A stretch of DNA of 29,352 bases from a virus (IMGVR_UViG_3300049719_000023:1-29352), one strand, 5' to 3'. Positions 13,846 through 28,310 are shown, counted from the first letter of the stretch. Program-made: numbers and translations. Notes: generated by a model from the sequence alone, not told the origin.

Positions 13846-14558
13846 GTCGCCCCCGCCAGTACTCGCAGGGAGGGAGAGACGCCGCCCCCGAATGAGCCGT
13901 GCGTCGTGCCAAGGATGGGACAGGGGTGCGCGCCGAGAAGCACGCCGTTCAGCTGCGACGTTGCGCCAGGCTGAGCGTTGAGCTTGATCATCCCCGTGGC
14001 CGAGCTGGCAGTGATGTCACCAGCGCTCGACTGCACGGTGATATTCTGCGAGCCGTCGATCTGAATCGACGCCTGCCCATCCAGCGAGCGCAGCTCGACG
14101 GCCGAAGCATTCAGCCCCGGCGAAACCTTCGCGATGCCTGGATTACTGGAGAACCCTACGAAGGCGAAGGCGTCGGAAAGGTCGTGTGTGCGAAGCTCCG
14201 AGGGAAGCTGGCTGCCGCCGTTCTTCCACCAGAAGTCAATCGCGCGCTCCGAGAACACGAGCAGGCATTCGTCTCCTGCAGTCACGGGAAACGACAGCAC
14301 AAAGCCACCCCCACGCGGGAAGAACACCGGCACGTCGACCAGCTTGGGAATGTCAACCGCGCCCTGGCCGCGAAAGAGCTTCTGGATTCCCGGCTGCACC
14401 TGTACCGTCTGCGTGCCAGGGTCGTAGCTTGTCACCGTGCCCGGCATGCTGGTGTGCAGGTTCAGCCGCTGCGCTTCCAGGGCGGCATTGAGCGCGGCTT
14501 CGTCGTCGTCGCAGGCGGCGTCGAGTTCTTGAAGCTGTTGAGTGAGATCGTCGCTCAT
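13842..14558 (-). CDS. Baseplate spike protein, Gp138-like
   Basis: Gp138-type spikes are trimeric membrane-piercing tips with an OB-fold N-terminal domain. This 238-aa protein has an N-terminal acidic helix, then HTSMPGTVTSYDPGTQTVQV and DIPKLVDVPVFFPRGGGFVL, then VTAGDECLLVFSERAIDFWW, the characteristic OB-fold segment. The C-terminal part alternates short beta repeats (ASIQIDGSQNITVQSSAGDI) typical of a spike beta-helix and ends in a LGAHPCPILGTTHG segment. The start is one base after the preceding stop. In this class of phage the spike follows the hub; here a small zinc-finger gene stands between them. Confidence 0.85.
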   Translation of the reverse strand: MSDDLTQQLQELDAACDDDEAALNAALEAQRLNLHTSMPGTVTSYDPGTQTVQVQPGIQKLFRGQGAVDIPKLVDVPVFFPRGGGFVLSFPVTAGDECLLVFSERAIDFWWKNGGSQLPSELRTHDLSDAFAFVGFSSNPGIAKVSPGLNASAVELRSLDGQASIQIDGSQNITVQSSAGDITASSATGMIKLNAQPGATSQLNGVLLGAHPCPILGTTHGSFGGGVSPSLRVLAGAT

Positions 14559-14559
14559 G

Positions 14560-15054
14560 TCAAAAATCTCGGTTCATTGCCGCACTTTCGGACAGTCGAC
14601 CCGTTGAAACAAGTTCTCGGATTTCCTTCTCACTGGCAACTGCACTCACGGCTCCCTGTCGCGCCGCCCACCTGATAGACGCAGCCCGCGATTCTGGAAT
14701 ATGGGATGGCGCCTCTTCACCTTTCTCTGCCTTGTTTTGAGTAGGCGAAGCGGTTGCGCCAGGCGGCGTTGGTTGCGCCTCCTTGGTTTCACAGGACCTC
14801 GCGTGCCTTATGCGTTGCAAATTGTTGCTCACGAATGCATTGCAGCTTTTGCATCGTAGGGTTGACGAACCATGCCCATGATCTACAAGTTCAACTCCGG
14901 CGTTTGCTCCCGAATGCTCTACGCCCGCTCCCCCGCCGCCCTCCCCGAACTTTCCGTCAGCATCGCGAGGCTGGTCAGGATTGAACCCGTCAACGATGCG
15001 CCTGGCACCCTTGACGCCATCCCTCGCTAGCCGTTTGTAAAAGTTCAGATCCAT
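14560..15054 (-). CDS. Small tagged protein with C2HC zinc finger, inserted between hub and spike
   Basis: The 164-aa product begins MDLNFYKRLARDGVKGARRI, almost identical to the start of the head-module gene at 26579-27019, which supports the ATG at 15054 (GAGG 8 bases before) over upstream GTG/ATG codons. The shared N-terminal part runs through DQPRDADGKFGEGGGG, an R-D-x-x-G-x-F/W-G-type motif common in phage accessory proteins, followed by a flexible Gly region. Residues C68, C71, H84 and C88 form a C-x2-C-x12-H-x3-C zinc-finger pattern. The C-terminus is helical and ends in SESAAMNRDF. No enzyme domain is seen. Location in a structural operon suggests a virion-carried or assembly factor; this is inference. 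Confidence 0.7.
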   Translation of the reverse strand: MDLNFYKRLARDGVKGARRIVDGFNPDQPRDADGKFGEGGGGAGVEHSGANAGVELVDHGHGSSTLRCKSCNAFVSNNLQRIRHARSCETKEAQPTPPGATASPTQNKAEKGEEAPSHIPESRAASIRWAARQGAVSAVASEKEIRELVSTGRLSESAAMNRDF

Positions 15055-15062
15055 GGTCATCC

Positions 15063-16100
15063 TCACATCATCAGATCATCATCCGGGGTCGAAGACATCG
15101 GAACCCCGGCCTTGGAAGGAATCGGCGAATCGAGCGCCACGCACATACATTCACAGTACCAGTCCGGCCCGCGGGTGTCACCAACCAGCTTGACCGCGTA
15201 GACCTTGTAGACGCCGTCAGGGTCGAGCCGAACCGGCATCTTGGGGCCTTTTAGCTTGTGTTTCTGGCCCTCGATGCTTGCCTTGAGGTGCTTCTGCTTG
15301 ACGTCGTTGTTCTGTAGCCAGAGCTTGCACCCTGGGATAATGCGCGGGTCGAGCATGCACTTGATCTTGATGCCCTTGTTGTTCACCTCGGGGGCGCCGA
15401 GAAGCCCGGTTTCAGAGCTGATCGCGATGGCCACGCCGGGCAGTACGGAATCGACCGGGACCAACACCATCGAACCGTTTTGGATCGACCAGTGGCCGTC
15501 GCTGTCCTTGGCGATCTTGTCCATCACGTCGCGTGCGTTCCCCGAGTAGGTGCGCCCGCGAAGCCGCTTCGTCTTGAGCTTCTTGCCGGCGACGCGCCCC
15601 ATGGTGGTTGCCCGCATGCTGGTTGTCAGGCTTCGGATCGTATCTTCGTCGTCATGGCCAGCCGTCAAAGTGAAGTTCACGAGGGCGCCGCGGAAGTCCT
15701 TGTCGCCATCGCCCGCGTTGATCTCGCTGATGTGGTCGTTCTCCTCGCGGTAGAAGTGGGTGAAGCGGATGTTACCGCGAAAAAAGGTGCGCACCTGACC
15801 GCGATAGCCGCCCTGGAGAATGACGTCGTTGAACTCGCGATCGATCTGACGCTCGTGGGTTTGGTTGAGGTTGTAGACCTTGATCAGTGCCTGGTTTGGC
15901 GTGCGATAGATCGTCTTGGTGATCTCGAAGGTGATACGCAACCCCGGGGAGTTGTCCTTCGGCATGGCGTCGATGAGCAGACCCGTAGCCGGCGAGACGT
16001 CCCCGTTTCCGTCCTTGCCCACGAGAAGTTGCAAGGACCGGAGAAACTTCGGGCCATCGTTCTTGAGGACGTACATATTCGGCCCCCACTGCGTGCTCAT
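15063..16100 (-). CDS. Baseplate hub protein (gp27/protein D-like)
   Basis: This 345-aa protein is the probable central hub linking tube, spike and plug. It follows the pattern of hub proteins from simple myoviruses: an N-terminal beta domain with GLRITFEITKTIYRTPNQAL and IKVYNLNQTHERQIDREFND, then VILQGGYRGQVRTFFRGNIR, which is strongly typical. A middle region has AGDGDKDFRGALVNFTL and TYSGNARDVMDKIAKDSDG, and the C-terminal domain has IIPGCKLWLQNNDV and YKVYAVKLVGDTRGPDWYCE. Its ATG overlaps the plug stop (ATGA). Confidence 0.85.
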   Translation of the reverse strand: MSTQWGPNMYVLKNDGPKFLRSLQLLVGKDGNGDVSPATGLLIDAMPKDNSPGLRITFEITKTIYRTPNQALIKVYNLNQTHERQIDREFNDVILQGGYRGQVRTFFRGNIRFTHFYREENDHISEINAGDGDKDFRGALVNFTLTAGHDDEDTIRSLTTSMRATTMGRVAGKKLKTKRLRGRTYSGNARDVMDKIAKDSDGHWSIQNGSMVLVPVDSVLPGVAIAISSETGLLGAPEVNNKGIKIKCMLDPRIIPGCKLWLQNNDVKQKHLKASIEGQKHKLKGPKMPVRLDPDGVYKVYAVKLVGDTRGPDWYCECMCVALDSPIPSKAGVPMSSTPDDDLMM

Positions 16101-16540
16101 GGCGACGGCACACTTTCACCAGGCGCGAGGTAGACAACGACCACGCGCGTCCCCAGGTCATCGTTGAACGCGCCCACCGGGTCGGCATCGAGCATCTGGT
16201 ACGCCGGGATAGTCAACTGGGACGTCGAGATGGCTGGACCAATCCAAGACAATGGCGTCGATGGATCGTTGCTTACGGGGCCAAGCACCCACGCGGGCGA
16301 GGCCGCCAAGTCGACCGCGAACAGACTCCCGATGTTGAGCCCGAACGGAGCCAGCATGTCGCAGCCGAGCAGGATAGGCACGCCGGCAACTAGCACTTCC
16401 TCGGTTGCCTTGAGCGATAGGTCGAACGACCACACGCCGTTGCGGTCGTTGTAGTTCGCCGCGAAGCCGTACTCGGTGCCGTTCAGGGTGCAACTGAAAG
16501 TCTGCCAAGGGTCGGAGGTGAATGGGATTACCTGTGGCAT
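16097..16540 (-). CDS. Baseplate plug protein (Pam3 gp18-like)
   Basis: The 147-aa protein resembles the plug described in the cyanophage Pam3 baseplate: an IPFTSDPWQTFSCTLNG start, a GFAANYNDRNGVWSFDLSLK strand pair, the GVPILLGCDMLAPFGLNIGS core and a C-terminal strand. It sits directly upstream of the hub gene, as in that phage type. The ATG at 16540 overlaps the previous stop (TGATG); a GTG one codon upstream is also possible. Confidence 0.75.
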   Translation of the reverse strand: MPQVIPFTSDPWQTFSCTLNGTEYGFAANYNDRNGVWSFDLSLKATEEVLVAGVPILLGCDMLAPFGLNIGSLFAVDLAASPAWVLGPVSNDPSTPLSWIGPAISTSQLTIPAYQMLDADPVGAFNDDLGTRVVVVYLAPGESVPSP

Positions 16541-17157
16541 CACAGCCCCACAATCTGCGCCATGATCGACGTCGGCTTGGCCTGTTGGCTCGATATCTCT
16601 TCGGCTTCCTTTTTCCCATCACCTGCCGGCGGCGCCGCTTGCCGCTTCGTCTTCTTCGGCCCGCGCGGCGGGTAGACCACCAGCGACGTGGTGGCGAACT
16701 GCACCGGGATGAGCTGGATTGTCGCCCGCAAGATGCCCGCGCTGTCCTTCTTTTGCTCGGCCGAGCCGTCGGCGAACATCATGTTCTGATAGAGCCTCAG
16801 GCCGGTCTGGACATCGAACACCACGAAGCTCGCTGCCTTGTCTAGAATCGCCTGCCAGGCCACCACAGAACGTTTGGTGCTCTGCCCGCTGGTCCAGGTC
16901 TGGCCGTGCAAGGGAAGCCCGGTCGCCGTGTCGACGAACGGGGTATCGCTGACGGTGATCTCCAATTCAAGCGGCACCTGTGCCACATAGGCGTGGTCCG
17001 CCAGGCTTTGGCCTGTCTCCACCGGGTTCTTGGTAATTTCCACGTGGAACTGATGCTTCTCGCGAATGACCGAGTCGAAGATCATCACGTCGGCGAGCCC
17101 GCTCACGGGGTCGGTGCCGAAGTCGAAGCGGCGAGGGATGATTGCGGTGGTTGCCAT
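16540..17157 (-). CDS. Dit-like tail protein
   Basis: This 205-aa protein follows the tape measure gene and overlaps its stop (TAATG). Features include an N-terminal beta domain with MIFDSVIREKHQFHVEITKN, then PVETGQSLADHAYVAQVPLE and LEITVSDTPF, a set typical of Dit-like baseplate ring proteins that bind the tail tube end. A helix precedes VFDVQTGLRLYQNMMFADGS. The C-terminal 40 residues are Lys/Pro-rich and probably disordered. Confidence 0.8.
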   Translation of the reverse strand: MATTAIIPRRFDFGTDPVSGLADVMIFDSVIREKHQFHVEITKNPVETGQSLADHAYVAQVPLELEITVSDTPFVDTATGLPLHGQTWTSGQSTKRSVVAWQAILDKAASFVVFDVQTGLRLYQNMMFADGSAEQKKDSAGILRATIQLIPVQFATTSLVVYPPRGPKKTKRQAAPPAGDGKKEAEEISSQQAKPTSIMAQIVGL

Positions 17158-18857
17158 TAGTGCGCCCCGCCTTGGCCGTTGCGTGCCTTCACGCGCGCGG
17201 AATCGCGCCCTTGGGAAATGCCACGGGCTTCAAGCTTCGCGCTGAACTCGCGGAACAGCTTTTCCGAATCGTCCCGCCCAAGCTTTGAGCCGTCGATGTG
17301 GAAGTGGAGATCACCCATCGTGATGACGTTAGACGTGGCCGATCCGCGCATCCCGCCGAGGAACGGGGAAACAGATCCAAGCCCTGGCATCATGGCCGCC
17401 CCGGCGCCCACGTAGCGCCCATAGGCTGCGCGCTCCGCTGGACCCTGTGGCCCGCGCGCGTTCACTGGCCGATGGTCAGCATTGAAGGCAGCGTTGCGCG
17501 TAGCCGCGTGGTTCTCGTTCATGGACAGGTCGACGCCAAACAGTTTGGCCGCCCAGCGCAGGGGGGCGTCCAACTTGTTGACGAACCAAGCGACCTTGTC
17601 CGCGAGTGAATCCCAAGCTTCCTCGAACCACTGCATGAGCGGATTCCAAGCATCCTTGATGGCCATGGCAGCGATGACGATGCCGCCGATCGCGAAGGCA
17701 AAGACGCCGACCGGCCCACTCCCGAGGGAGAGCGCAAGGAACGCGGCGCCAAGCACGTCAAGCGCTACCACCATGACGTCGACCGCCTGGGGGAACTCCG
17801 TCAGCATCCATCCGGTGACGCTCACGCCTCCCTGATGGAATACCCACAGGTCCTCGGCCACCAGAATCAACAACCCGAGAACGCCAGCGGTGAGCACGCC
17901 TTGGATCGCCTTGAAGCCGGTCGCGAGAAGTTGCGCCGTCGCTGCCCCTTTCCCGAGCGCGCCCACCACGCCCATGATCTTTGTCCCCCACTCCATGAAC
18001 ATCATCCCGTACTTGTGCGCGTAGATGACGGCGAACACGGCCAGAATCTTGTCTAGGTTTCGCGCGAGCGCGCCCACGATCTCTACCACCTTGTTGATGG
18101 CGTCGCGCAACTTGGCGACGTTCTTCTCATTGCTCACCCACGCTGTGAACTTCTTCAGCAGGTCGTTGACGGTCGGGAAAAGTCCGACGGCGAGACGGTC
18201 GCGCAGACGCTGCACCGCCTGGCCGGCCTTTTTGAAACCTTCCTCGGTCTTGAGGGCGTTCTCATAGTCCTTGTCGCCGAAGGGATTGGCCTTTTGAGCC
18301 GCGCTGGCCATGCGTTCGAACTCGGCGCGCCCCTTGGCCAAGATGGGAACGATGGCCGGGTCGAATCCAAGGCGCGAGCCCAGCGCCATCTTCTGCGCGA
18401 GGCTGGGCAGCTTGGCCATCTTGTCGGCTACGTCGCCAAGGAGCTGGTTCATCGGCTTGACGTGGCCCTCGCTGTCCTTGACCTGGATGCCGAATCGCTT
18501 GAAGATCATCGCCCCGCGGCCCACGCCTTGCGCGGCCTGGCCGGCCATCATGGTCATCTGGCGAAGCCCGCCCTCCATGGCCTCCATAGATGAGCCATTC
18601 TCTGCCGCTACTCGCCCAAGCGCCGCGACCTCGCGGGCGTTGATGCCCATCTGCTCGCCGAACCGCTGGATGCCGCCCATCTTCTCGGCGGTGCCGCGCA
18701 CCATGCGTTCGAGGCCGTAGACCGTGCCAGCGACGGCGGCGCCCACCGCGAGCATGCCGTGCTTTAACGTATCGGTGGTCTTGGCGTACTTCTCCAGCCC
18801 TTCGGGTTCAATCTTCCACCCTAAGCTGACAAAAAGCGCGTCGATTATTGTGGGCAT
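17157..18857 (-). CDS. Tail tape measure protein
   Basis: The tape measure sets tail length and is threaded through the tube. This 566-aa protein has a helical N-terminal half with MGGIQRFGEQMGINAREVAA and MEGGLRQMTMMAGQAAQGVG, then a hydrophobic middle with several possible membrane segments (GVLTAGVLGLLILVAEDLWV, VFAFAIGGIVIAAMAIKDAW). The C-terminus is Gly-rich and contains VITMGDLHFHIDGSKLGRDD, common in the ends of such proteins. At the usual ~0.15 nm per residue the tail would be about 85 nm, fitting a short contractile tail. The ATG at 18857 lies inside the tiny ORF upstream, overlapping it by 13 bases. Confidence 0.9.
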   Translation of the reverse strand: MPTIIDALFVSLGWKIEPEGLEKYAKTTDTLKHGMLAVGAAVAGTVYGLERMVRGTAEKMGGIQRFGEQMGINAREVAALGRVAAENGSSMEAMEGGLRQMTMMAGQAAQGVGRGAMIFKRFGIQVKDSEGHVKPMNQLLGDVADKMAKLPSLAQKMALGSRLGFDPAIVPILAKGRAEFERMASAAQKANPFGDKDYENALKTEEGFKKAGQAVQRLRDRLAVGLFPTVNDLLKKFTAWVSNEKNVAKLRDAINKVVEIVGALARNLDKILAVFAVIYAHKYGMMFMEWGTKIMGVVGALGKGAATAQLLATGFKAIQGVLTAGVLGLLILVAEDLWVFHQGGVSVTGWMLTEFPQAVDVMVVALDVLGAAFLALSLGSGPVGVFAFAIGGIVIAAMAIKDAWNPLMQWFEEAWDSLADKVAWFVNKLDAPLRWAAKLFGVDLSMNENHAATRNAAFNADHRPVNARGPQGPAERAAYGRYVGAGAAMMPGLGSVSPFLGGMRGSATSNVITMGDLHFHIDGSKLGRDDSEKLFREFSAKLEARGISQGRDSARVKARNGQGGAH

Positions 18858-18985
18858 TTTCCATCTCGCAAGTGAACGCGATGCTCGCGCAGCCTGACCT
18901 CGATGGCCATGGATTGCCCAACGTACCGATCTCCCGTCGCCAGGTTTCGGATTTGGTAGAGGCCAGATGTTCCTATTCTTGCCAT
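18845..18985 (-). CDS. Tiny GIY-YIG-like ORF (46 aa), truncated endonuclease motif
   Basis: The ORF starts three bases after the chaperone extension stop and ends inside the tape measure gene, so it fills the gap exactly. It reads MARIGTSGLYQIRNLATGD, then RYVGQSMAIEVRLREHRVHL and RDGKCPQ. This matches the start of GIY-YIG nuclease domains: GLY, about 10 residues, YVGQS, then a helix with the conserved Arg in the I-x-x-R-x-x-x-H pattern. A complete GIY-YIG domain is about 90 residues; the part with the catalytic Glu and Asn is missing, so nuclease activity alone is unlikely. It may be a remnant of a homing endonuclease or a small protein reusing the fold. No strong ribosome binding site is seen; translation would depend on coupling. 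Confidence 0.6.
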   Translation of the reverse strand: MARIGTSGLYQIRNLATGDRYVGQSMAIEVRLREHRVHLRDGKCPQ

Positions 18986-18988
18986 GGT

Positions 18989-19629
18989 CTACGTCTGCGG
19001 CTTGTTCACCCTGTCGAAACGCCTCTGGTTCTCTTCCTCGATGTCCATCGCCTCGTGCATGTCGGCGAGGTCATCTATGGAGTACGTCCCATCTTGGAGT
19101 TCTCGCAGGGTGCAAAGCGGCGGGTTTCTCAAGATGGGCCTCCAGATTGCGCGGTCTATGTTGGCCGGTAGCGCCGGCTCGAATGCTATGGCGTCGTCGT
19201 CGGTGGGCTCGAACCCGAGGGGCTTACGGGAAAAAAACGGCTGTAGTTCACCTTCAACCCCTCGAAGAACACCTTCCACATGGTGGCCGGGTCGGAGTCT
19301 CCGAACACGGCGTCGATGGTGCGCGGCTCGATGTCGTTGCCCTCGCACGTGGTGTAGGCGAAGACGACTTCCATCAGCTTCAGAACCTGATCACCGTCGG
19401 AGCTTTGAATAATGCCGGTGACGATGGGCCCGAGCGCGTTGGCAATTGCGATGATATCCCTGGAAGCGAAGATCGCTTTCCACTTGTCCATGTCCTGGGT
19501 AAAGAGAAGCTGAATCTCTGGCCCAACCAGCTTGAGCAGTTGCACTTGCAACGGGACCGACTTGGTCGGCGGGATGCGGCCGAAAGCGTACTCTCGGCCG
19601 TCGATGCGTTTGATGGGCGCCGAGGCCAC
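18989..19629 (-). CDS. Tail assembly chaperone, -1 frameshifted long form (about 213 aa)
   Basis: Two overlapping minus-strand frames occupy the tail-chaperone position between tube and tape measure. Frame 0 runs 19629-19186. A -1 shift on the seven T residues at 19231-19237 joins residue 133 (after YSRFF) to SRKPLGFEPTDDDAIAFEPA and the rest of the second frame, ending in DIEEENQRRFDRVNKPQT. The shift codes for an acidic C-terminal extension of about 80 residues, as in lambda gpG-gpGT type chaperones that bind the tape measure protein. The second frame has no convincing start of its own. The fused form is an inference based on the slippery heptamer and the family's known behaviour. Confidence 0.75.
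19186..19629 (-). CDS. Tail assembly chaperone, short form
   Basis: The unshifted product is 147 aa, starting at a GTG (MASAPIKRIDGREYAFGRIP) three bases after the tube stop, with a GGGGGTG stretch upstream. It is mostly helical, with PLQVQLLKLVGPEIQLLF and DQVLKLMEVVFAYTTCEGND, typical of chaperones for contractile-tail tubes. The short form ends in PVSPSGSSPPTTTP after the slippery site. Together with the long form it should coat the tape measure protein during tube assembly. Confidence 0.8.
   Translation of the reverse strand: MASAPIKRIDGREYAFGRIPPTKSVPLQVQLLKLVGPEIQLLFTQDMDKWKAIFASRDIIAIANALGPIVTGIIQSSDGDQVLKLMEVVFAYTTCEGNDIEPRTIDAVFGDSDPATMWKVFFEGLKVNYSRFFPVSPSGSSPPTTTP
19231..19237 (-). 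other. Slippery heptamer T-TTT-TTT for -1 frameshifting
   Basis: On the minus strand seven T bases lie in the chaperone frame as cgT TTT TTT ccc, the arrangement that allows a tandem -1 slip. A short stem CTCG/CGAG (19208-19219) begins about 11 bases downstream. The shifted frame is open for a further 80 codons. Confidence 0.75.
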
Positions 19630-19632
19630 GGG

Positions 19633-20115
19633 TTACACCCCCAGCAATTCGGCGATGGCCGCGGGTGTGCCGGAGAAGGAAGGATCCCCGAGTTCGAGTT
19701 TTCCACCCTCAAAGAGTAGCGTCCACTCCGTCTCATTCTGCTTCCCGCCACGCTTGATCGGGGTGTGGTTCTCGATGCATCCGACGGTCGTGACGCCGAA
19801 GTCTTGCCGGCGGGCATCTTGAAACCCAATGGTGATTTGTCCGTTCTGCCCCGGCGTCTGCTGCCGGTTGAACATCTTGGACAAGATAGCGTTCATGGGC
19901 GAGAGCTGCGAGAACTTCCAGGTCACCTTGATCGAGTTGTCCGCGCTCGTGCTGATGCTCGCGAGCCCATCCACACCGATGTCCATCTCGACGCCGGGGG
20001 AGCGGCGCTCGAACTGGAACACGTCATCGCCCTTGCCCCACCCGGTCAGGGGAACGTTGTTGTAGCCGTACCCGCTGATGACGGTGGTGATTGTGCGCCA
20101 ATCGAAATTCTTCAT
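19633..20115 (-). CDS. Tail tube protein, DUF3277 family
   Basis: This 160-aa protein follows the sheath gene, the usual order. It has GYGDDVFQF-like and tube-fold features: GYNNVPLTGWGKGDDVFQFE, the SADNSIKVTWKFSQLSPMN stretch and ITIGFQDARRQDFGVTTVGC, all typical of DUF3277 tube proteins, and ends in a GTPAAIAELLGV helix. It should form hexameric rings stacked inside the sheath. The ATG at 20115 is 10 bases after the sheath stop with AGGAGCT before it. Confidence 0.85.
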   Translation of the reverse strand: MKNFDWRTITTVISGYGYNNVPLTGWGKGDDVFQFERRSPGVEMDIGVDGLASISTSADNSIKVTWKFSQLSPMNAILSKMFNRQQTPGQNGQITIGFQDARRQDFGVTTVGCIENHTPIKRGGKQNETEWTLLFEGGKLELGDPSFSGTPAAIAELLGV

Positions 20116-20125
20116 GGGTCAGCTC

Positions 20126-21319
20126 CTAGCGTTGGAAGATGATAGTGGGGGCGCAGTATTGGATCGCGCCTGCGCCGCAAACGAGAATGGTGATGGGGGG
20201 AGCCTGTCGCGCCGCCCTCTGTGCTGTGGTGAGTGATGACACTGGGGCCGCATAGACGTAGTAACCGCGGGGCAGAACGTCGAGCGTGTTGACGTTCCCG
20301 ACGCCCTGGAAGGTCCAGATGCCAGGCGCACAGAGCCCGGCCGACTTGGCTTGCTCCATGACGGTCGTGATGGCGTTGACGAGCATCGCGGATCCGCTGT
20401 CCGTCTGGGGGATGCGGCTGCCGCTGGTCGCCGCCTGTTGCATGGCATTGAAGACGGCCACCTGGACGTTGCTTTGCAGCCAGTCGAGCGCGATACCCTC
20501 GTCCTCGAATCGACCGTCACACGCCTGCCCTCGCGCCAGCATGGCCGTGTTTCCGAAGGTGGCATAGACGTTGCCATTCCATCCTGGCGTCACGCCGTCG
20601 AAGGTGCCGGTGATGGTCGTGAGCTGCGATTGAGTCAGCGTCGAAGCAGACAGCGCCGCGAGCGACTGAAACATGAAGGTCTTCATGCTGTTCGGCGCGC
20701 CAAGGTTCATCGTCGAAGCGATGGCCATCACGCCAGCGTGCGCGGTGCCGTTCGCGTCCGATGCGGAATCAGAATAGATGCCACATGCGCGCGGGGTGGA
20801 TACGCCGCCGACAACGCCGACGGTTCCGCTCAAGAAGGCCAGCAGGTTGACGGGAGGACTCGCGGGCGCGAGGCAGTCAGCTTCCTGCGTGACGAAGAAG
20901 AAACGCAGCCCGTTCGCCTGGCAGAACGCAGCGGCCAGCTTGACGTTCGCCGCGGTCGTGGCAGGCTCGCACGCCACCAGGTAGAAGTTCGGATCGTAGT
21001 TGAATGTCGCCGTCATGGCCGCCGTAATGCTGGCGTCCGCGCTCAGCCAGAGCCCGACCTTGATCGAAGCTGGAGCGGGAGACTGCGAGAAGTACGCGGC
21101 GACGAAGTTCTGCAAGGCCGTGTCGCTGCCGAAGTCGGTTGTGACCGCAGCGGCGCCCGTGTAGCTCGCCGTCCGCTGACCAGCGGCCCACGCGGCGGGC
21201 TTCGCGGCCTGCGCCGAAGTCAGAACGAGCCCGATGTTGAAGTTCTTCGCCGACTGTGGCGTCGCCGTCACTTGCAGCGTGACCGGGACGACGTTGTTTA
21301 GTGAGAGTGTGCTGGCCAT
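20126..21319 (-). CDS. Tail sheath protein, DUF3383 family
   Basis: The 397-aa product has the DUF3383 sheath layout: N-terminal NNVVPVTLQVTATPQSAKNF, an early FNIGLVLTS strand, a RTASYTGAAAVTTDFGSDTA domain, YDPNFYLVACEPATTAANVK, and a C-terminal domain with DEGIALDWLQSNVQVAVFNA, IPQTDSGSAMLVNAITTVME and RAARQAPPITILVCGAGAIQ. These are the elements that form the contractile sheath and its interlocking arms. AAAGGAAA precedes the ATG at 21319. Confidence 0.9.
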   Translation of the reverse strand: MASTLSLNNVVPVTLQVTATPQSAKNFNIGLVLTSAQAAKPAAWAAGQRTASYTGAAAVTTDFGSDTALQNFVAAYFSQSPAPASIKVGLWLSADASITAAMTATFNYDPNFYLVACEPATTAANVKLAAAFCQANGLRFFFVTQEADCLAPASPPVNLLAFLSGTVGVVGGVSTPRACGIYSDSASDANGTAHAGVMAIASTMNLGAPNSMKTFMFQSLAALSASTLTQSQLTTITGTFDGVTPGWNGNVYATFGNTAMLARGQACDGRFEDEGIALDWLQSNVQVAVFNAMQQAATSGSRIPQTDSGSAMLVNAITTVMEQAKSAGLCAPGIWTFQGVGNVNTLDVLPRGYYVYAAPVSSLTTAQRAARQAPPITILVCGAGAIQYCAPTIIFQR

Positions 21320-21341
21320 GTTTGGTTTCCTTTGGTTGAGA

Positions 21342-22100
21342 TCACGGCTGCGCTACCGTAAGGACTCGGATATCAGGCGCTGGCTGTCCCGGCGAGGCGA
21401 ATTCCAGCGAGATGCCGACGTTCGCGAAGGTGTTGAGGATGAGGGTTTCGCTGTTGGGAATCGTGAAGGTAAAGTCGACCGAGCCGCGATCTTCGAAGTA
21501 GGCGCTATTCACCAATGCGGCCACGTTGCGCGCGGGAGAGTTGTCCTCGATGCCAAGGTTCATGGTGTCCATGAGATTGAGCATGTCTTCTTGGCCAAGA
21601 CGAGACGCGAGCCGCGCCGCCTTGTCGAAAGCACCGAGGCCGAACGTAGCGAGTCCAGCTCCATCGGGATTCGGGTTCGCGTGGCGGAAAAACTGAATCG
21701 AAGTCGTGAACGTGTAGATGTTGTCGTTGGTCTCGACGGTCTGAGTAGTCGGCGTGGCCGTCGCCCAGTGGGTGTTGTCGGTAGCCGGACCGGCGCCGCC
21801 CGTTACCGCCATGATGCACAGGTAAGAGTTGGCGCCGACCGAGACGAGCGCGCCGTAGGCGTAGGCAAGTGTCACGTCCCACGCGGGATAGACCGCGGTC
21901 AGGTATGATTTGTTCCCGGTGCCGAAGTCCGAATAGCTCGACATGATCCGGACAGTCGCGTACTCGTCCTCGTCGCTTCCCGCTGGGCTCTTTTGGTCAG
22001 CGGGTCGGACGCTGTTGGGCGCCATGCCGTAGGCAGTGCGCACGAGGTAGCAGATCAGGAACTCGGCCGCGTCCTTGAAACTGTTGGCGACAAAGCTCAT
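21342..22100 (-). CDS. Tail terminator/neck protein with a carbohydrate-binding-like insert
   Basis: Position before the sheath gene and the ends MSFVANSFKDAAEFLICYLV and TLILNTFANVGISLEFASPG fit LIC_12616-type neck terminator proteins, which cap the tube and connect it to the head. The family is usually shorter; here a stretch at residues 70-113 (YPAWDVTLAYAYGALVSVGA, then NSYLCIMAVTGGAGP and THW) has the layout of a CBM5/12 module and interrupts the fold. The 252-aa protein then resumes with DNIYTFTTSIQFFRHANPNP, DKAARLASRLGQEDMLNLMD and DRGSVDFTFTIPNSE. Its ATG overlaps the previous stop (ATGA). Confidence 0.75.
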   Translation of the reverse strand: MSFVANSFKDAAEFLICYLVRTAYGMAPNSVRPADQKSPAGSDEDEYATVRIMSSYSDFGTGNKSYLTAVYPAWDVTLAYAYGALVSVGANSYLCIMAVTGGAGPATDNTHWATATPTTQTVETNDNIYTFTTSIQFFRHANPNPDGAGLATFGLGAFDKAARLASRLGQEDMLNLMDTMNLGIEDNSPARNVAALVNSAYFEDRGSVDFTFTIPNSETLILNTFANVGISLEFASPGQPAPDIRVLTVAQP

Positions 22101-22471
22101 GGTGATCCCTCCGGGAGTAGTCGCTGCGCAAGTGCCTTGATCATGCCGTGCTTGTAGAAACCCTCGACATGCAGCACCTGGAAGGTGTGGCCCATGTCGT
22201 TGATCAACACGTCGCCGATGGTAGAAGACCCATCGCCAGCGCTCACGGGAACCGATGAGTAGAAGGCCCTGACGTCCGAAAGTCTGACGCCATCGGGGAG
22301 AAACTGCGCATCTTCGGTGTTGGCGGGCTGGATGATTCCCGCAACGGTCAAATCATCGTAGGACTGCTGGGCGATGCCTTCGCCCGAGTAGGTCGTGGTA
22401 GGCCGGCGCCGTGTGAAGGTGGTGCCACCCAAGTCGAAGTCAACGACGATGTCGGAAACGTCGACTCTCAT
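22097..22471 (-). CDS. Neck/head-closure-type protein
   Basis: This 124-aa protein lies between the HK97 gp10-like and terminator genes, where head-closure or stopper proteins are normally found. It has the pattern TFTRRRPTTTYSGEGIAQQ, then TVAGIIQPANTEDAQFLPDG and DVLINDMGHTFQVLHVEGFY, similar to small connector proteins with a query-type beta fold. The assignment is by pattern and position. Its ATG overlaps the preceding stop. Confidence 0.6.
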   Translation of the reverse strand: MRVDVSDIVVDFDLGGTTFTRRRPTTTYSGEGIAQQSYDDLTVAGIIQPANTEDAQFLPDGVRLSDVRAFYSSVPVSAGDGSSTIGDVLINDMGHTFQVLHVEGFYKHGMIKALAQRLLPEGSP

Positions 22472-22980
22472 CGGACTACCCTCGCGTTTGCGGATTCGGA
22501 TCCAGCCTCAATCCAGGTGATCGACTGCCGAAGGTTCCCGCTTGCAATCAGTGGCCGAGAGCTGGCCTTGCCGAAACGGCGCTTACGCGCGTCGATGGTG
22601 GATTGCTTGAGCGGTGCAAAGTCTGCCGTGGTGAACTCGCGCTTGACTTCGCCGGCCGCCAGCGCCCCGAGTTGCCCCATGGCCTGGCTGACCGTCGATT
22701 CACCTTGCACCACGGCGCGAAGGTTCTTCTCGTTGAGCGCGCTAAACTTGGGCATGCCTCGGCGAATCCCGCCGCGAAGAAAAGAGCGCTCTGGGATGTT
22801 CTGCTCTGGTGAGCCGAATTCGTGAACTGCGGCGATCATCGCCATGGGGGTGCCGTCTTCTTCAGGCTTCGCGCCCACGGGAACGCCCACAAGAACGCTC
22901 TTGTTTGCGTCCTTCATGCGCTGGCGAAGCGCCTTCAGTCCAGGCAGCGCGCCGCCGCTAGACTTAACTGAGAACGACAC
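22468..22980 (-). CDS. HK97 gp10-like tail/neck completion protein
   Basis: The 170-aa product starts at GTG 22980 (MSFSVKSSGGALPGLKALRQ), which overlaps the stop of the small upstream ORF and has a G-rich stretch before it. The central MIAAVHEFGSPEQNIPERSF is the hallmark of the HK97 gp10 and phage virion morphogenesis families, followed by LRGGIRRGMPKF. The C-terminal part has FTTADFAPLKQSTIDARKRR and RPLIASGNLRQSITWIE, also usual for such proteins. It likely joins head and tail. Confidence 0.8.
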   Translation of the reverse strand: MSFSVKSSGGALPGLKALRQRMKDANKSVLVGVPVGAKPEEDGTPMAMIAAVHEFGSPEQNIPERSFLRGGIRRGMPKFSALNEKNLRAVVQGESTVSQAMGQLGALAAGEVKREFTTADFAPLKQSTIDARKRRFGKASSRPLIASGNLRQSITWIEAGSESANARVVR

Positions 22981-23152
22981 GCTCGCCCCCAATCTGCATG
23001 CCACCAATCGTTGGCCGTTCGCCAGCGACAGTCATGCGCGTGAGCGTCCAGCGCGGCTCGGCGTCTGCCGGTGCTGTGTCCTTGACCTGCGTCTCGGTCA
23101 CGGCCGGCGCGGGCGTCGGGATTGCCTGCGTCCTGTGATGATGCTTGCTCAC
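22964..23152 (-). CDS. Small hypothetical protein in neck module (62 aa)
   Basis: The GTG at 23152 overlaps the preceding TGA (GTGA), and its own stop lies inside the next gene, so it fills the gap exactly. The product starts MSKHHHRTQAIPTPAPAVTE, Pro/His-rich, and ends with RWTLTRMTVAGERPTIGGMQ and IGGERVVLS. It is not recognised. The closeness of both overlaps supports translation. GAGG lies about 7 bases before the start. Confidence 0.6.
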   Translation of the reverse strand: MSKHHHRTQAIPTPAPAVTETQVKDTAPADAEPRWTLTRMTVAGERPTIGGMQIGGERVVLS

Positions 23153-23562
23153 CAAAGTACCTCGTCGAGTCCGTCGGCCGCCGCGAAGCTGCCCGCCGCA
23201 ATGGTGCCGCCCAACCCGACCATGTCGCGCAGCTCGCAGTAGCGGCGCCCGTAGTCGGTCAAGAGGAACGTGTCGGAAAGCTGCTTGTTAAGTATCTGCG
23301 AATCAAACGAAGTCCCGACAGGGCCAACATGCTTCTCGGTTGTATTGCCGCCGTTCATCTGGACAATGCCCCTGGCCGCTCTGGCCTTGCTCACCACGAT
23401 GCTGTGGGCAACGTAGCAAGAAAGGCCCTCCGAATACCAAGACCCCCAGCTCCCCACATCAAAGAATGGGGTCGCCGCGTTCAAGAACTTCTGAACGTAG
23501 TCACCCGTCAGCGCGGAGAATTCGCCGTCGGGAAACTGGGCCTGGAATTCGGAGGGCAGCAC
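23149..23562 (-). CDS. Head-tail connector, DUF4054 family
   Basis: This 137-aa protein begins MLPSEFQAQFPDGEFSALTG at a GTG four bases after the capsid stop. It shows the DUF4054 layout: a first helix, then FLNAATPFFDVGSWGSWYSE and GLSCYVAHSIVVSKA, then GPVGTSFDSQIL and a final TDYGRRYCELRDMVGLGG, the conserved TxYGRRYxEL motif. It likely binds the portal or neck as an adaptor. Confidence 0.8.
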   Translation of the reverse strand: MLPSEFQAQFPDGEFSALTGDYVQKFLNAATPFFDVGSWGSWYSEGLSCYVAHSIVVSKARAARGIVQMNGGNTTEKHVGPVGTSFDSQILNKQLSDTFLLTDYGRRYCELRDMVGLGGTIAAGSFAAADGLDEVLW

Positions 23563-23566
23563 GGGG

Positions 23567-24826
23567 TTAGCTCTGTTGATCGGCCTTCAGGACGTTGTCC
23601 TGGTAGTAGATCGTCGAGGGGTATCGGACGTCGATTGGGCAGAAGCGGTAGCGACCGGGGACCACCACTTCATCATTGCGGGGCTGAGGAGCCAGGAAGG
23701 TCAGCGTCAGGGGCTGATGCATGATCAGGTATTCCGGGGACTTCGCGTAGTAGACCACGCGAGATGACACCTGACCGGCGGTGATGGCGGATCCGGAGTG
23801 CTTCAGAGCGCCAGCGTAGTTCAGCGAAGAACCCGCCGTGGTGATGGCGCTCCCCGTGGACTCGTCCTTGTCGGGAACGATGCCGTGAAATTGGATGTCG
23901 ATGTTCCCTTGCAGCTTGCTCATGTTGTTCGCCTTGATGTAGGCGAGCAGGCTTTGCCCAACCGGCACGGTCACGCCGCTTCCAGTCGCGGAGAGGATTG
24001 TGTTGTTGAGCGCCGACAGTGCATCCATCGGGAGAGCGATGTCAGTCACCAGGGCGTTGGTACCCGATGCCGAGTACACCGCCGTGATGCCCAGATTGAT
24101 GTCGGCCAGGATGGCGAGGGGCGACGTCGATGAGTTGTCCCAGTTGCCAGTTGGCGCGACCACGGGGGTAATCTTCGAGCTGGGCTGATTCCAGAACCCA
24201 TAGAGCCCGTGGACGGTGTCACCGCGAAGCGCGATGTCCTGCATGTGGCGCTCGTAGCCGATCATCGCCGCCTTCATGCGGAAGTCGCTCAAGGGCTTCT
24301 TGAGCTGCTGCGATTCGATCAGCTCTTGGACGTTGTACTTGTAGCCGATCTTTCCGCCCTTGACCTCGATCAAGCGCCGGCCGAACTTGGCGTCGGCGAA
24401 AGGCATATCAGTTGCGTTGGCCGCAACGATCTGCCCCTTGCCGGTGCTCGTGTACTCTTCGGCCTGCACGCTGTCCGCCCACGGGGGAGCCTCGTAGGAG
24501 ACGGGGATAAGGTCCTTGTAGACCACGGGGACGCGGAACTTCTCCAGCATCTTCGCCTCGGTGTAGGCGAGCTGGGAAATGTTCCACGAGAGGGGATCTG
24601 TCGAGTCGTAGGCGGCTCGCGTCCCGTCGAAGATGTACCCGAACGACTTCAGCGCGGCTTCGATTTGGTCGAAGCGGCTGGCGGCGTTGAGCGGGCGGCC
24701 ATCTGCGGTGATGTGGTTGGTCAGTTCGACCATCCGGCCTTGCGGGTGGCCGTCGAACAGTCGCAGCGTGCGGCAGTCGACAGCGTAGCCCTTTGCGTCC
24801 TTTACCTGAGTTCTTGAGAGCAACAT
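23567..24826 (-). CDS. Major capsid protein, DUF2184 family
   Basis: The ATG at 24826 (MLLSRTQVKDAKGYAVDC) follows AAGGAAAGGAC. The 419-aa sequence matches the DUF2184 HK97-fold capsid family: AYTEAKMLEKFRVPVVYKDL followed by IPVSYEAPPWADSVQAEEYT, GKIGYKYNVQELIESQQLKK, ERHMQDIALRGDTVHGLYGF, WNQPSSKI, then ALPMDALSALNNTIL, and a C-terminal core domain with YYAKSPEYLIMHQPLTLTFL and RFCPIDVRYPSTIYYQDN. It follows the protease-scaffold and cement genes as expected. An upstream in-frame extension to 24898 lacks family similarity and has no ribosome binding site. Confidence 0.9.
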   Translation of the reverse strand: MLLSRTQVKDAKGYAVDCRTLRLFDGHPQGRMVELTNHITADGRPLNAASRFDQIEAALKSFGYIFDGTRAAYDSTDPLSWNISQLAYTEAKMLEKFRVPVVYKDLIPVSYEAPPWADSVQAEEYTSTGKGQIVAANATDMPFADAKFGRRLIEVKGGKIGYKYNVQELIESQQLKKPLSDFRMKAAMIGYERHMQDIALRGDTVHGLYGFWNQPSSKITPVVAPTGNWDNSSTSPLAILADINLGITAVYSASGTNALVTDIALPMDALSALNNTILSATGSGVTVPVGQSLLAYIKANNMSKLQGNIDIQFHGIVPDKDESTGSAITTAGSSLNYAGALKHSGSAITAGQVSSRVVYYAKSPEYLIMHQPLTLTFLAPQPRNDEVVVPGRYRFCPIDVRYPSTIYYQDNVLKADQQS

Positions 24827-24854
24827 TTGCTGTGTCCTTTCCTTGCTGTGCCTG

Positions 24855-25409
24855 TTACGAGATGTATGGCGCGATGTCGCGACGGTAGACCGCCACAACG
24901 CCGAGCTGACCTTGGGACGTGGTGGTCTTCCACACGTGGCCCGGAACTGCGATGCGCGAACCGCTTGCGGTGCCGGCGGAGTCGCCTCCCACGTTGGTCG
25001 AGATGCCCGTCGAGGGCGAGTACGGGGTGACGAGCGCGATCACTTGATCGTTTTCGTTGACGTTCTCGGCCGCCATGCAAACAACGTCGCCAGTCTCGTA
25101 GACTGCGAACTCGTCGTTGGTCTTGTAGCCAACCAGCTTCGTGGACGGGTCAGCGCCGCGCTTGATTCTGCGCGAGCTGATGCCGACGGGACGAAGGTAG
25201 CCGGTCTGGAGCAACCCGGCGTTGTTGTCCGCGCCGGGGTACTTGGCGACGACCACGCCGAAGTCGACCATGCCAGCGGAGTCGAGTCCGTTGGTCGTTC
25301 CGACGTTGATGAACGTGCTCTTGGGGGCGTCGGTCTTGCCGTTCGCTTCCGCGCCGGGGAGCCCGATCTGCTGAACGTATCCGCCTACGGTATCGAGTAG
25401 AGATGCCAT
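24855..25409 (-). CDS. Capsid structural cement/decoration-type protein
   Basis: The product is 184 aa and sits between scaffold and major capsid genes, where decoration or cement proteins are common in phages with DUF2213 and DUF2184. It begins MASLLDTVGGYVQQIGLPGA and carries FINVGTTNGLDSAGMVDFGV, TGYLRPVGISSRRIKRGADP, VYETGDVVCMAAENVNENDQ and a final QGQLGVVAVYRRDIAPYIS, beta-rich throughout. AAGGAAAGG precedes the ATG. It is probably needed in many copies per head, fitting the strong ribosome binding site. Confidence 0.7.
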   Translation of the reverse strand: MASLLDTVGGYVQQIGLPGAEANGKTDAPKSTFINVGTTNGLDSAGMVDFGVVVAKYPGADNNAGLLQTGYLRPVGISSRRIKRGADPSTKLVGYKTNDEFAVYETGDVVCMAAENVNENDQVIALVTPYSPSTGISTNVGGDSAGTASGSRIAVPGHVWKTTTSQGQLGVVAVYRRDIAPYIS

Positions 25410-25433
25410 GTTCTTTGCCTTTCCTTTGAAGCC

Positions 25434-26027
25434 TTAGAGACGCTCAACCGGGCCGGTCGCCGTCCATGAAGTGGTGTTGCTGCCGAGGGCGCGTCCGACG
25501 GCTGCATCTTGGGCCGCGAGGGCGGCGTGCTTGGGGAGCGCCAGCAAGACTCCGAAGGTCGCCTTGACCTGGTCTTCCGTGGCCTTGTCGATGCCGGCGG
25601 CGCCGAACAGTTCGTCGGCAACGGCCTTGTTGGTGGCATCGCCACAAGCAACCGCGATGGCTGCCTTGCGGATGTCGTGCGAGCTGCCCTTGATGTCCAG
25701 CTCGGGCGCCAGCTTCTTGGCCGACTCAACCAGCGCGGCGCGGTCTGCGACGAGCGTGTCGATGTCGATGGCTTCCACCTTCGCCAGCTTGGCCTTGAGG
25801 GCGGTGATTTCTGTGTCATTGGCCGTGACCGACGCCTTGACGGCGGTCAGCTCGGCATCCTTGGCAGAAATCTTCGCCTTGTGCGTGTCGACGGCTTCGC
25901 TGAAGTCGGCGATCACTTGGTCGCGGTCTGCGGCCAGTTTCTTGACGTGGGTCTCGATGGCCTCGGCCGCTAGTTCGTCAATCTCGAACCGCGGCAGCCC
26001 ATCCACTGCGATCTTACGTGTGCTCAT
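25434..26027 (-). CDS. Nested in-frame scaffold protein (internal start)
   Basis: Inside the protease-scaffold gene, GAGGAG lies 7 bases before an in-frame ATG at 26027 (MSTRKIAVDGLPRFEIDELA), exactly at the junction between protease and coiled-coil parts. Translation from here would give a 197-aa scaffold without the protease, as known for the lambda C/Nu3 gene pair. This is an inference from the ribosome binding site quality and domain boundary; the same DNA is counted in the full-length gene. Confidence 0.6.
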   Translation of the reverse strand: MSTRKIAVDGLPRFEIDELAAEAIETHVKKLAADRDQVIADFSEAVDTHKAKISAKDAELTAVKASVTANDTEITALKAKLAKVEAIDIDTLVADRAALVESAKKLAPELDIKGSSHDIRKAAIAVACGDATNKAVADELFGAAGIDKATEDQVKATFGVLLALPKHAALAAQDAAVGRALGSNTTSWTATGPVERL

Positions 26028-26579
26028 GGTCTGCTCCTCTGTTTGGTTTTCACGGTCCGCGATTCGGCAAACAGGTCCGCCCCGCGGGACGTCGACGATG
26101 GCGACGTGATCCCCTAAAATTTCTCGCTGGTAGCCGTCGAAGCCTTCGCCCGGTGTCAGGTCGAGGTTGAAGCTATAGCCGCATGAAAGCGCGCCCTTGC
26201 CAGCGACTACCTTGCTGACCATGGCGCCGTCTTTGACGATGGACTTCCCGCCGAGCAGGTCGCCGTCGGCCTTGCTGACGTCGCGAACTTCGCCCTTGGA
26301 CAGCTTCGCCCAGTTCTGCGCGTTCACGCCTCCGGACGGATGCCCATCGGTGATCGGCACGTTCTCGAAGCTGGCGACTGTCTCGGGGCGGAATACCTCG
26401 TCAGCCGTCCGCATGAGCCGCACCAGCGCGCGCGGGTCACCGTCAAGGCCAAGCTCGCCGCGGGTGTAGGTCTGCACGCCAGTCCGACCGATGATCGCGG
26501 GCGCGACGAGGTAGCCTTGCGGCGTGACCTCGCGCTTCGAGATCGTCGTGATGTCGTGGACCTGGCAGCGGGTGCTCAT
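25434..26579 (-). CDS. Capsid maturation protease-scaffold, DUF2213 family
   Basis: The 381-aa protein has an N-terminal DUF2213 domain (about residues 1-180): ISKREVTPQGYLVAPAIIGR, TGVQTYTRGELG, ETVASFENVPITDGHPSGGV and the conserved end QREILGDHVAIVDVPRGGPV. DUF2213 proteins are thought to be head maturation proteases. The C-terminal part (about 185-381) is a long charged coiled coil (KKLAADRDQVIADFSEAVDT, KAKISAKDAELTAVKASVTA) with a helical tail domain, the expected scaffold. A strong internal start at 26027 suggests the scaffold is also made alone. Its ATG overlaps the previous stop (TAATG). Confidence 0.85.
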   Translation of the reverse strand: MSTRCQVHDITTISKREVTPQGYLVAPAIIGRTGVQTYTRGELGLDGDPRALVRLMRTADEVFRPETVASFENVPITDGHPSGGVNAQNWAKLSKGEVRDVSKADGDLLGGKSIVKDGAMVSKVVAGKGALSCGYSFNLDLTPGEGFDGYQREILGDHVAIVDVPRGGPVCRIADRENQTEEQTMSTRKIAVDGLPRFEIDELAAEAIETHVKKLAADRDQVIADFSEAVDTHKAKISAKDAELTAVKASVTANDTEITALKAKLAKVEAIDIDTLVADRAALVESAKKLAPELDIKGSSHDIRKAAIAVACGDATNKAVADELFGAAGIDKATEDQVKATFGVLLALPKHAALAAQDAAVGRALGSNTTSWTATGPVERL

Positions 26580-27019
26580 TACTTCTTGCCCTCGACTGCC
26601 GCATGCGCAGCTTGCTTGGCGTACGTCAACGCCTTCGCCAAATTGCCTGCTCTTTCGTGCCCCTCGCTTTGCTTAGCAAAATCCCTGGAACTTTCGCTGT
26701 CACTGCGCCTAGCGGCTTCTCTGTAATATTCGATTGCTTTCGTGGCTCTTCCCGCCACCTCGTGTTGCTTTCCTGTCTTCTGTAAATCCTTGAGTTCTTC
26801 CTTGCTGGCTCCAGTGACGGGAGAAAAGACTAGGTGCCCTTCGGCGTTTCGCTGACTACTTCCGCTCCCTTTGCCACCGCCGCCACCCCCGCTTCCCCCG
26901 CTTCCCCATTTCCCATCCGGGTCGCGTGGCTGGTCTGGGCTTCCGTCCAACGCCTTCACGATGCGCTTCGCGCCCTTGACGCCATCCCGAGCAAGTCGCT
27001 TGTAGAAGTTGATGTCCAT
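26579..27019 (-). CDS. Small tagged protein with Gly-rich linker and TPR-like helices
   Basis: The 146-aa product begins MDINFYKRLARDGVKGAKRI, sharing its first ~45 residues with the gene at 14560-15054, including the DQPRDPDGKWGSGGSGG motif and Gly-rich linker. The C-terminal half is helical with TPR-like pairs (GKQHEVAGRATKAIEYYREA, EGHERAGNLAKALTYAKQAA). The ATG at 27019 is 2 bases after the previous stop; an open frame extends upstream into the neighbour and is not used. No enzyme motif is visible. It may be a virion-carried protein; the function is not known. Confidence 0.7.
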   Translation of the reverse strand: MDINFYKRLARDGVKGAKRIVKALDGSPDQPRDPDGKWGSGGSGGGGGGKGSGSSQRNAEGHLVFSPVTGASKEELKDLQKTGKQHEVAGRATKAIEYYREAARRSDSESSRDFAKQSEGHERAGNLAKALTYAKQAAHAAVEGKK

Positions 27020-27021
27020 GG

Positions 27022-27333
27022 TTACTTGCCCCAGCAATCCCCCGCCTTGTGGCAGGCCAGCGCGTCCTTGTAGGCGTCCTTGGCCTGCTCGTGTTCGCCG
27101 CGCGACTCGTGCAAGCGCCCGCGCTCTTCGTGAACAGACGCGGCCTGGTCGTGCTCGCCGGCTTCGCTGTGGGCCTTGGCGCGCCCGTTGAGTTCGCCGA
27201 TGGCGCCCGCAAGCTGCGTGCTGGAATCGGAATCGTCCATCTCTTCGCCGGGCATCGAGCCGAAGTCGTCAGCGATGTGCTTCGCATTCGCGTTGCCGTC
27301 GGCTGCCAAGCGTCGGTAGAGTTCGGTATTCAT
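27022..27333 (-). CDS. Small tagged protein with TPR-like helices
   Basis: The 103-aa protein begins MNTELYRRLAADGNANAKHI, a more distant version of the YKRLARDG tag (Y, RLA, DG, AK and I conserved). It lacks the DQPRD motif and Gly linker. The rest is TPR-like: GRAKAHSEAGEHDQAASVHE, then ERGRLHESRGEHEQAKDAYK. AGAGGAGA precedes the ATG at 27333, which overlaps the stop of the head morphogenesis gene (ATGA). An extension upstream to 27420 lies inside that gene and is rejected. Confidence 0.7.
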   Translation of the reverse strand: MNTELYRRLAADGNANAKHIADDFGSMPGEEMDDSDSSTQLAGAIGELNGRAKAHSEAGEHDQAASVHEERGRLHESRGEHEQAKDAYKDALACHKAGDCWGK

Positions 27334-28283: not shown

Positions 28284-28310
28284 TGCGGTGCCACGTTGGC
28301 ACAATTGTTG

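What the first reader, a model, noticed from the sequence alone, without database searches (positions are those of the whole stretch)
14560..27333. Three small proteins share an N-terminal 'YKRLARDG' tag at two places in the structural operon
Genes at 14560-15054 and 26579-27019 start with nearly the same ~45 residues (MD-x-NFYKRLARDGVKGA, then DQPRDxDGKxGxGG), followed by unrelated C-terminal parts: a C2HC zinc finger in one and TPR-like helices in the other. A third gene (27022-27333) has a diverged copy of the first 24 residues. A shared head plus swapped tail looks like an address label: the tag might direct accessory proteins into the capsid or onto the baseplate, or be removed by the maturation protease. 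The RDxxG motif is common in phage accessory proteins, but its role is not established.
Basis: partly seen in the sequence, partly recalled or inferred. Interest (0 to 1): 0.68.

Follow-up and report, generated by a model that had tools for sequence, protein, structure and literature searches.

The report
Shared label heading phage cargo proteins
Three small proteins of a bacterial virus begin with the same short label, which also recurs in unrelated viruses at the joints between head-building proteins and the enzymes or toxin-like proteins thought to be shipped into the host, so it may be a general tag for loading cargo into virus particles, though its function is untested.

Summary
P0002 (14560-15054) and P0003 (26579-27019) share a ~44-residue head; P0004 (27022-27333) has a diverged copy of its first 24 residues. 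The match is not a recent copy: 32 of 43 aligned residues agree, but 20 of those 32 use different codons. Near-identical relatives lack P0002 (two contigs) or P0003 (one). Two others keep the P0003 head and carry a different tail; in one the exchange falls inside the Gly linker. These are dispensable 'constant head, exchangeable tail' cassettes, not structural parts. The second half of the head, F-N/D-P-D-Q-P-R-D-x-x-G-K/R-W/F-x-x-G-G, recurs in about 90 ORFs from diverse phages. Before it stand portal proteins (five Pfam families) or MuF; after it ADP-ribosyltransferases, zeta toxins, topoisomerase IB, Acb1, PBECR nucleases or prohead proteases. Copies within one phage co-vary (0 of 5000 permutations) although the sequences after them are unrelated. 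Best reading: a header that marks accessory proteins as phage-head cargo, comparable to T4's capsid targeting sequence. Rivals are a processing site, a hinge or a passive linker. A baseplate role is unlikely. No paper found describes the motif. The function is inferred; nothing was measured.

The parts
14560..15054 (-). P0002: tagged small protein (164 aa) between baseplate hub and spike genes; head + C2HC zinc-finger-like tail + C-terminal helices
   Evidence: absent in relatives L132 and L133
14929..15054 (-). Head (tag) of P0002, residues 1-42
   Evidence: match to the P0003 head, E 8e-18
14935..14985 (-). Motif FNPDQPRDADGKFGEGG in P0002 (residues 24-40)
14791..14853 (-). CKSC...H...C zinc-finger-like stretch of P0002 (residues 68-88)
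   Evidence: read from the sequence; AlphaFold strand-strand-helix at 54-88, pLDDT about 70; Foldseek hits weak
26579..27019 (-). P0003: tagged small protein (146 aa) between MuF/P0004 and the DUF2213 protease; head + Gly linker + TPR-like helical tail
   Evidence: absent in L139, tail replaced in L007 and L008
26888..27019 (-). Head (tag) of P0003, residues 1-44; predicted helices at residues 3-11 and 17-24
26894..26947 (-). Motif DGSPDQPRDPDGKWGSGG in P0003 (residues 25-42)
26848..26905 (-). Gly-rich linker of P0003 (about residues 39-57); homology with L007 ends inside it near 26868 and resumes at 26578
   Evidence: blastn blocks; AlphaFold pLDDT < 50 at residues 41-69
27022..27333 (-). P0004: helix-only copy of the head (residues 1-24) without the QPRD motif; TPR-like tail
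25434..26579 (-). DUF2213 head maturation protease / scaffold (context)
   Evidence: Pfam DUF2213 E 6e-45, phrog_530 head maturation protease E 4e-72
27330..28304 (-). MuF-like head morphogenesis protein (context)
   Evidence: Pfam Phage_Mu_F E 3e-22
15063..16100 (-). Baseplate hub, E217 gp41-like (context)
   Evidence: Pfam E217_GP41 E 1e-6, phrog_196 baseplate hub E 2e-64
13842..14558 (-). Spike-type protein with PF18352 N-terminal domain (context); 'spike' is inferred from position next to the hub
   Evidence: Pfam PF18352 E 7e-39

Best explanation
The head is a cargo header. A short N-terminal helix pair (MDxNFYKRLARDGVKGAKRIV) is followed by a linear motif (F-N/D-P-D-Q-P-R-D-x-x-G-K/R-W/F-x-x-G-G) and a flexible Gly-rich hinge, and behind it sits an exchangeable accessory domain. 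The header most likely docks the accessory protein to a phage-encoded partner inside the growing procapsid, so that it is enclosed with the DNA and can be released into the host. Shown here: shared heads, swapped or missing genes, recurrence of the motif beside head proteins and effector-type domains, and co-variation of copies within a phage. Inferred: docking in the procapsid, presence in virions, ejection, and the identity of the partner (portal, MuF or the DUF2213 scaffold-protease are candidates).
For: (1) Head kept at protein level after synonymous divergence: 20 of 32 conserved residues use different codons. (2) Cassette behaviour: P0002 absent in L132 (hub 99% identical) and L133 (95%); P0003 absent in L139; in L007 homology ends inside the Gly linker and resumes at the next gene; L008 carries the head with another tail. 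(3) Motif in about 90 distinct ORFs. Parts before it: 12 portal matches over five Pfam families and 6 MuF. Parts after it: ADPrib_exo_Tox 14, Zeta toxin 5, ART-PolyVal 4, TopoIB 2, PBECR, Acb1, and prohead proteases. (4) In 110 non-motif ORFs of the same loci the ART family has at most one member: 14 of 104 against 1 or fewer of 110, Fisher p 2.5e-4. (5) Copies in one record agree at 6.1 of 9 variable positions against 3.7 expected, 0 of 5000 permutations, while following residues are about 9% identical. (6) Independent phages also share a head ahead of different tails, including a portal and a 398-aa protein in one Lichenifustis genome, and a zeta-toxin protein and its neighbour in L032. (7) It starts genes annotated 'capsid maturation protease' in cultured mycobacteriophages and Nocardia phage P3.1. 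(8) Literature: phage effectors fused to MuF or portal are thought to be head-packaged (PMC5512222, PMC9503650); T4's N-terminal capsid targeting sequence does this job (PMC9026906).
Against: No virion proteomics or localisation data were available for any motif protein. Sixteen polypeptides carry 2-3 copies at domain junctions, more than one address label should need, unless labelled cassettes fused. P0004 has the helix but no motif. Many MuF, portal and protease proteins in the same loci lack the motif. The tails of P0002 and P0003 have no recognised effector function. No binding partner was identified.
Confidence: 0.5

Rival explanations
1. The motif is a processing site or release hinge. 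The prohead protease (DUF2213, S78 and others) cuts at or beside QPRDxxGKW, freeing effectors from portal, MuF or N-terminal helix anchors, so that multi-copy proteins are polyproteins.
For: Motif lies between domains, with 2-3 copies spaced by domain lengths in 16 polypeptides; Gly-rich disordered stretch follows; within-phage co-variation would fit a phage-specific protease; T4 cuts its targeting sequences off.
Against: The window's major capsid protein lacks the motif, although the cleaved T4 head proteins share one cleavage motif. Some proteins start with the motif, with nothing upstream to be cut off: L052 and L070, Predator and P3.1 proteases.
Confidence: 0.22
2. The motif is a passive flexible linker, kept because Gly-rich joints tolerate domain exchange and serve as recombination points; it has no partner.
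For: It sits at domain junctions, is Gly-rich, and the L007 exchange point falls inside the Gly run.
Against: FxPxQPRDxxG[KRQ][WF] is sharply conserved with sharp edges (though the sequences were collected with this motif), conserved through synonymous divergence, and co-varies within phages at positions that a passive linker would leave free.
Confidence: 0.15
3. The head marks proteins for the baseplate or tail tube, as the P0002 gene position between hub and spike suggests.
For: Gene position of P0002; contractile-injection systems carry lumen cargo (own knowledge). A short QPRDASGRFAYSGG stretch occurs in the solved phage 7-7-1 baseplate hub (E 1.6 with the profile), probably by chance.
Against: Relatives with 95-99% identical hubs lack P0002. 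Elsewhere the motif joins portal, MuF and prohead protease proteins.
Confidence: 0.05
4. Ordinary paralogy: the genes descend from a duplicated small head protein whose N-terminus is merely the conserved part of one fold, with no label function.
For: P0003 and P0004 are tandem and both TPR-like; several tagged relatives have similar His/Ala-rich helical tails.
Against: The same motif stands before folds that are clearly unrelated, such as ART, zeta toxin and topoisomerase, and tails exchange while the head stays.
Confidence: 0.08

Closest known systems
T4 capsid targeting sequence (CTS) of IPI, IPII, IPIII (PMC9026906)
   Same: Short N-terminal sequence shared by otherwise different, non-essential, exchangeable internal proteins; according to that review gp21, the protease, may also carry a targeting propeptide.
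   Different: No similarity to the short CTS (about 10 residues needed) or to the T4 cleavage logo was sought or seen; here the label is longer, also stands inside portal/MuF fusions and occurs in many unrelated phages; neither targeting nor cleavage has been shown.
Polyvalent proteins and MuF/portal-effector fusions (Iyer et al. 2017, PMC5512222; Viruses 2022, PMC9503650)
   Same: Same domain repertoire: MuF, portal, ART, 2H, PBECR, zeta-type kinases, ParB, linked to head genes.
   Different: In the passages searched no shared linear motif at the junctions is described; the window's tagged proteins are small and carry no recognised effector domain.
MuF polymorphic toxins of temperate phages (Jamet et al. 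2017, PMC5576092)
   Same: Constant head-associated N-terminal part with exchangeable C-terminal part.
   Different: P0002, P0003 and P0004 have no MuF domain and no recognised toxin domain; the paper's text holds neither 'motif' nor 'linker'.

Membership tests
T4-type capsid targeting sequence | Short N-terminal sequence shared by otherwise unrelated proteins of one phage | tested here: met
   P0002/P0003 heads; L032, L086, Lichenifustis genome
T4-type capsid targeting sequence | Sequence sufficient to bring a foreign protein into the head | not testable with these tools
   needs fusion and virion analysis
T4-type capsid targeting sequence | Removed by the prohead protease | not testable with these tools
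   needs mass spectrometry; window capsid protein lacks the motif
T4-type capsid targeting sequence | Sequence similarity to the T4 CTS | not tested
   no comparison was run; functional analogy only is claimed
Polyvalent / head-delivered effector proteins | Effector domain fused to or encoded beside head packaging genes | tested here: inconclusive
   met for the motif's wider set; for P0002-P0004 only the gene context is met, no effector domain was found
Polyvalent / head-delivered effector proteins | Presence in the virion and ejection | not testable with these tools
   no proteomics available
MuF polymorphic toxins | MuF domain in the same polypeptide | tested here: not met
   no MuF match in P0002, P0003, P0004
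MuF polymorphic toxins | Exchangeable C-terminal tail behind a constant part | tested here: met
   L007 and L008 against window
TPR proteins (tails of P0003, P0004) | Pfam TPR model above its gathering score | tested here: not met
   best 22.6 bits against cut-off 27.8 for P0004; 18 against 27 for P0003
C2HC zinc finger (tail of P0002) | Recognised zinc-finger family or confident fold match | tested here: inconclusive
   Cys/His spacing fits and the model shows strand-strand-helix, but no Pfam hit and weak Foldseek hits

The most novel reading that the evidence does not exclude
FNPDQPRDxxGKWxxGGG is a widespread, undescribed virion-cargo signal used by tailed phages with unrelated portals and hosts: a portable header that lets any accessory protein be loaded into the phage head by a phage-specific partner with which it co-evolves.
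Probability: 0.4. Interest if true: 0.82.

Novelty: new variant of a known kind. Interest (0 to 1): 0.62.

Why it matters
How phages outside the T4 group choose which proteins travel in the head is poorly known. A short motif that marks such proteins would let unknown small genes be recognised as candidate host-takeover or anti-defence factors from sequence alone. It would also make the loading mechanism testable in cultured phages (the mycobacteriophage Predator group carries it). If it is instead a processing site, it would reveal the cut specificity of prohead proteases in many phages.

Tried and rejected
Full 44-aa head against cultured phages: only chance-level hits. DNA-level relatives in INPHARED: one weak hit to a minor capsid gene. 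Short-motif tblastn with other variants, phages and plasmids: none; short queries are insensitive there. PDB by sequence: no convincing match; the phage 7-7-1 baseplate hub stretch (E 1.6) was rejected as probable chance. AlphaFold plus Foldseek: P0003 tail gave no useful match; P0002 only weak zinc-binding-fold matches. Recent DNA duplication as the cause of shared heads: rejected by codon comparison. Baseplate role for P0002: rejected as main reading because relatives lack it. Literature for the motif string: the only hit is a Theileria paper. NCBIfam: nothing. The RNA-structure tools were not relevant. A search of an order of bacterial genomes failed on a wrong handle and was not repeated.

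Full report
CHECKING THE OBSERVATION. The window is a 29,352-base virus record; its structural genes run on the minus strand. The P0003 head finds only itself, P0002 (E 8e-18) and P0004 (E 0.007) in the record. P0002 and P0003 agree at 32 of 43 aligned head residues, 20 of these encoded by different codons, with 69% nucleotide identity. The head has therefore been held at protein level for a long time, against chance or a recent copy. P0004 keeps only the helix part. The gene order is MuF - P0004 - P0003 - DUF2213 protease - decoration - major capsid protein, then tail genes, then hub - P0002 - spike.

CASSETTE BEHAVIOUR. Contigs with nearly identical flanks settle what kind of genes these are. 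In L133 (hub 95% identical) and L132 (99%) the hub gene runs straight into the spike gene: in L133 the stop and start overlap (ATGA), in L132 17 bases separate the aligned flanks. P0002 is absent from both. In L139 (DUF2213 92% identical) P0004 runs straight into DUF2213 and P0003 is absent. In L007 the flanks are 96% and 88% identical; homology ends within the Gly linker of P0003 (about window 26868) and resumes at the DUF2213 start (26578), so the whole tail is another sequence. L008 likewise carries the head with a third tail. P0002 and P0003 are thus dispensable accessory genes with a constant head and an exchangeable tail.

THE MOTIF BEYOND THIS PHAGE. Scans of IMG/VR with the head and with the 16-residue motif gave about 90 distinct ORFs. 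The logo of 101 copies is F/Y-N/D-P-D-Q-P-R-D-x-x-G-K/R/Q-W/F-(T/G/S/A)-x-G-G-G, with no conservation before it and Gly-rich sequence after it (the core positions were part of the search pattern or filter, so their full invariance is partly by construction). Segments before the motif match five portal families (Phage_portal_3, Phage_portal, Portal_2, Portal_Mu, P23-45), MuF, 2H and Acb1. Segments after it match ADP-ribosyltransferases, zeta toxins, MuF, ParB, topoisomerase IB, Acb1, PBECR1/3 and several prohead protease families. In 110 non-motif ORFs from the same loci the families are terminases, capsid, connector, tail and also some MuF, portal and protease genes; the ADP-ribosyltransferase family has at most one member there. 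In cultured phages the motif opens the gene annotated as capsid maturation protease in the mycobacteriophage Predator group and Nocardia phage P3.1, at residues 3-15 (Predator) and 6-18 (P3.1). The sister contig G001 holds four copies of head or motif: P0004, P0003, P0002 and the portal, where the motif is followed by a domain with an HNHPSG...STAD stretch that looks JAB-like by eye but has no Pfam match.

CO-VARIATION. In 16 records with more than one copy, copies agree at 6.1 of 9 variable positions against 3.7 for permuted copies (0 of 5000 permutations reached the observed value), although the 40 residues downstream are about 9% identical and third positions at conserved, mostly fourfold residues agree at only 42% against 30% between records. 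The 20 residues upstream are also more alike within records (15%) than between (8%), with clear shared heads in L032, L086 and L068 and between a portal and a 398-aa protein of the Lichenifustis genome. A common partner per phage explains this best; old duplication within a lineage under selection is not excluded, and related records are not fully independent.

STRUCTURE. AlphaFold gives the head two confident short helices (3-11, 17-24; pLDDT about 85) and leaves the stretch from the end of the motif through the Gly linker and the start of the tail (residues 41-69) below 50, followed by a helical tail; pTM is only 0.28. P0002 alone gives a finger-like strand-strand-helix and confident C-terminal helices, pTM 0.32. 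No fold match is significant.

MECHANISM. Shown: a constant, selected head; exchangeable or missing cassettes; association of the motif with head proteins and effector-type domains; per-phage co-variation. Inferred: the header docks the protein to a procapsid partner, the protein is packaged, and it is ejected. T4 offers the precedent (PMC9026906): about ten N-terminal residues shared by different internal proteins suffice for head loading, the internal proteins are non-essential and vary among relatives, and the protease itself may be targeted in the same way. The strongest points against a pure address label are the 16 polypeptides with two or three copies, which fit a processing site or hinge better, and the absence of the motif in P0004. 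The strongest points against a processing site are proteins that begin with the motif and its absence from the window's capsid protein.

NOVELTY. Head-delivered effectors and their fusion to MuF and portal are known (PMC5512222, PMC9503650, PMC5576092). A search of the held literature for the motif string found no phage paper describing it, but subscription papers are not held and the search is by exact string. I file it as a new variant of a known kind (cargo-loading signal), with function unproven.

Noticed in passing
L012:8558-10906, L012:10882-11934, L069:5186-8215, L069:9911-11890: A second junction motif, GGPGSGNFGHxGRPGxVGGS, occurs in proteins of the same contigs, in three of four cases together with the QPRD motif; it may be an alternative header of the same class.
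   Followed up: no
L056, L078, L087: A further variant, NPxHDxxGRFAS, takes the same Gly-rich junction position.
   Followed up: no
L004:1981-2592 (portal C-terminus; outside the window): Portal extension after the motif carries HNHPSG...STAD, JAB/MPN-like by eye, no Pfam match; Predator and P3.1 encode a metalloprotease next to the motif-bearing protease.
   Followed up: partly
L037, L044, L055, L067, L007, L020: Tails of many tagged small proteins are His/Ala-rich helical hairpins (HxxAAxxH), possibly one cargo family distinct from the enzymes.
   Followed up: no
L008:9728-10000: The P0004 slot of L008 holds another small protein whose start, YRRAVDSGSQHAQHLLDEL, looks like a further diverged helix-only head.
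   Followed up: no
L140 and L142 (Lichenifustis flavocetrariae genome): Portal and a 398-aa protein share a 47-residue head ending in YSPDQPRDPxGRWTEGGG, an independent example in a prophage-like region.
   Followed up: partly
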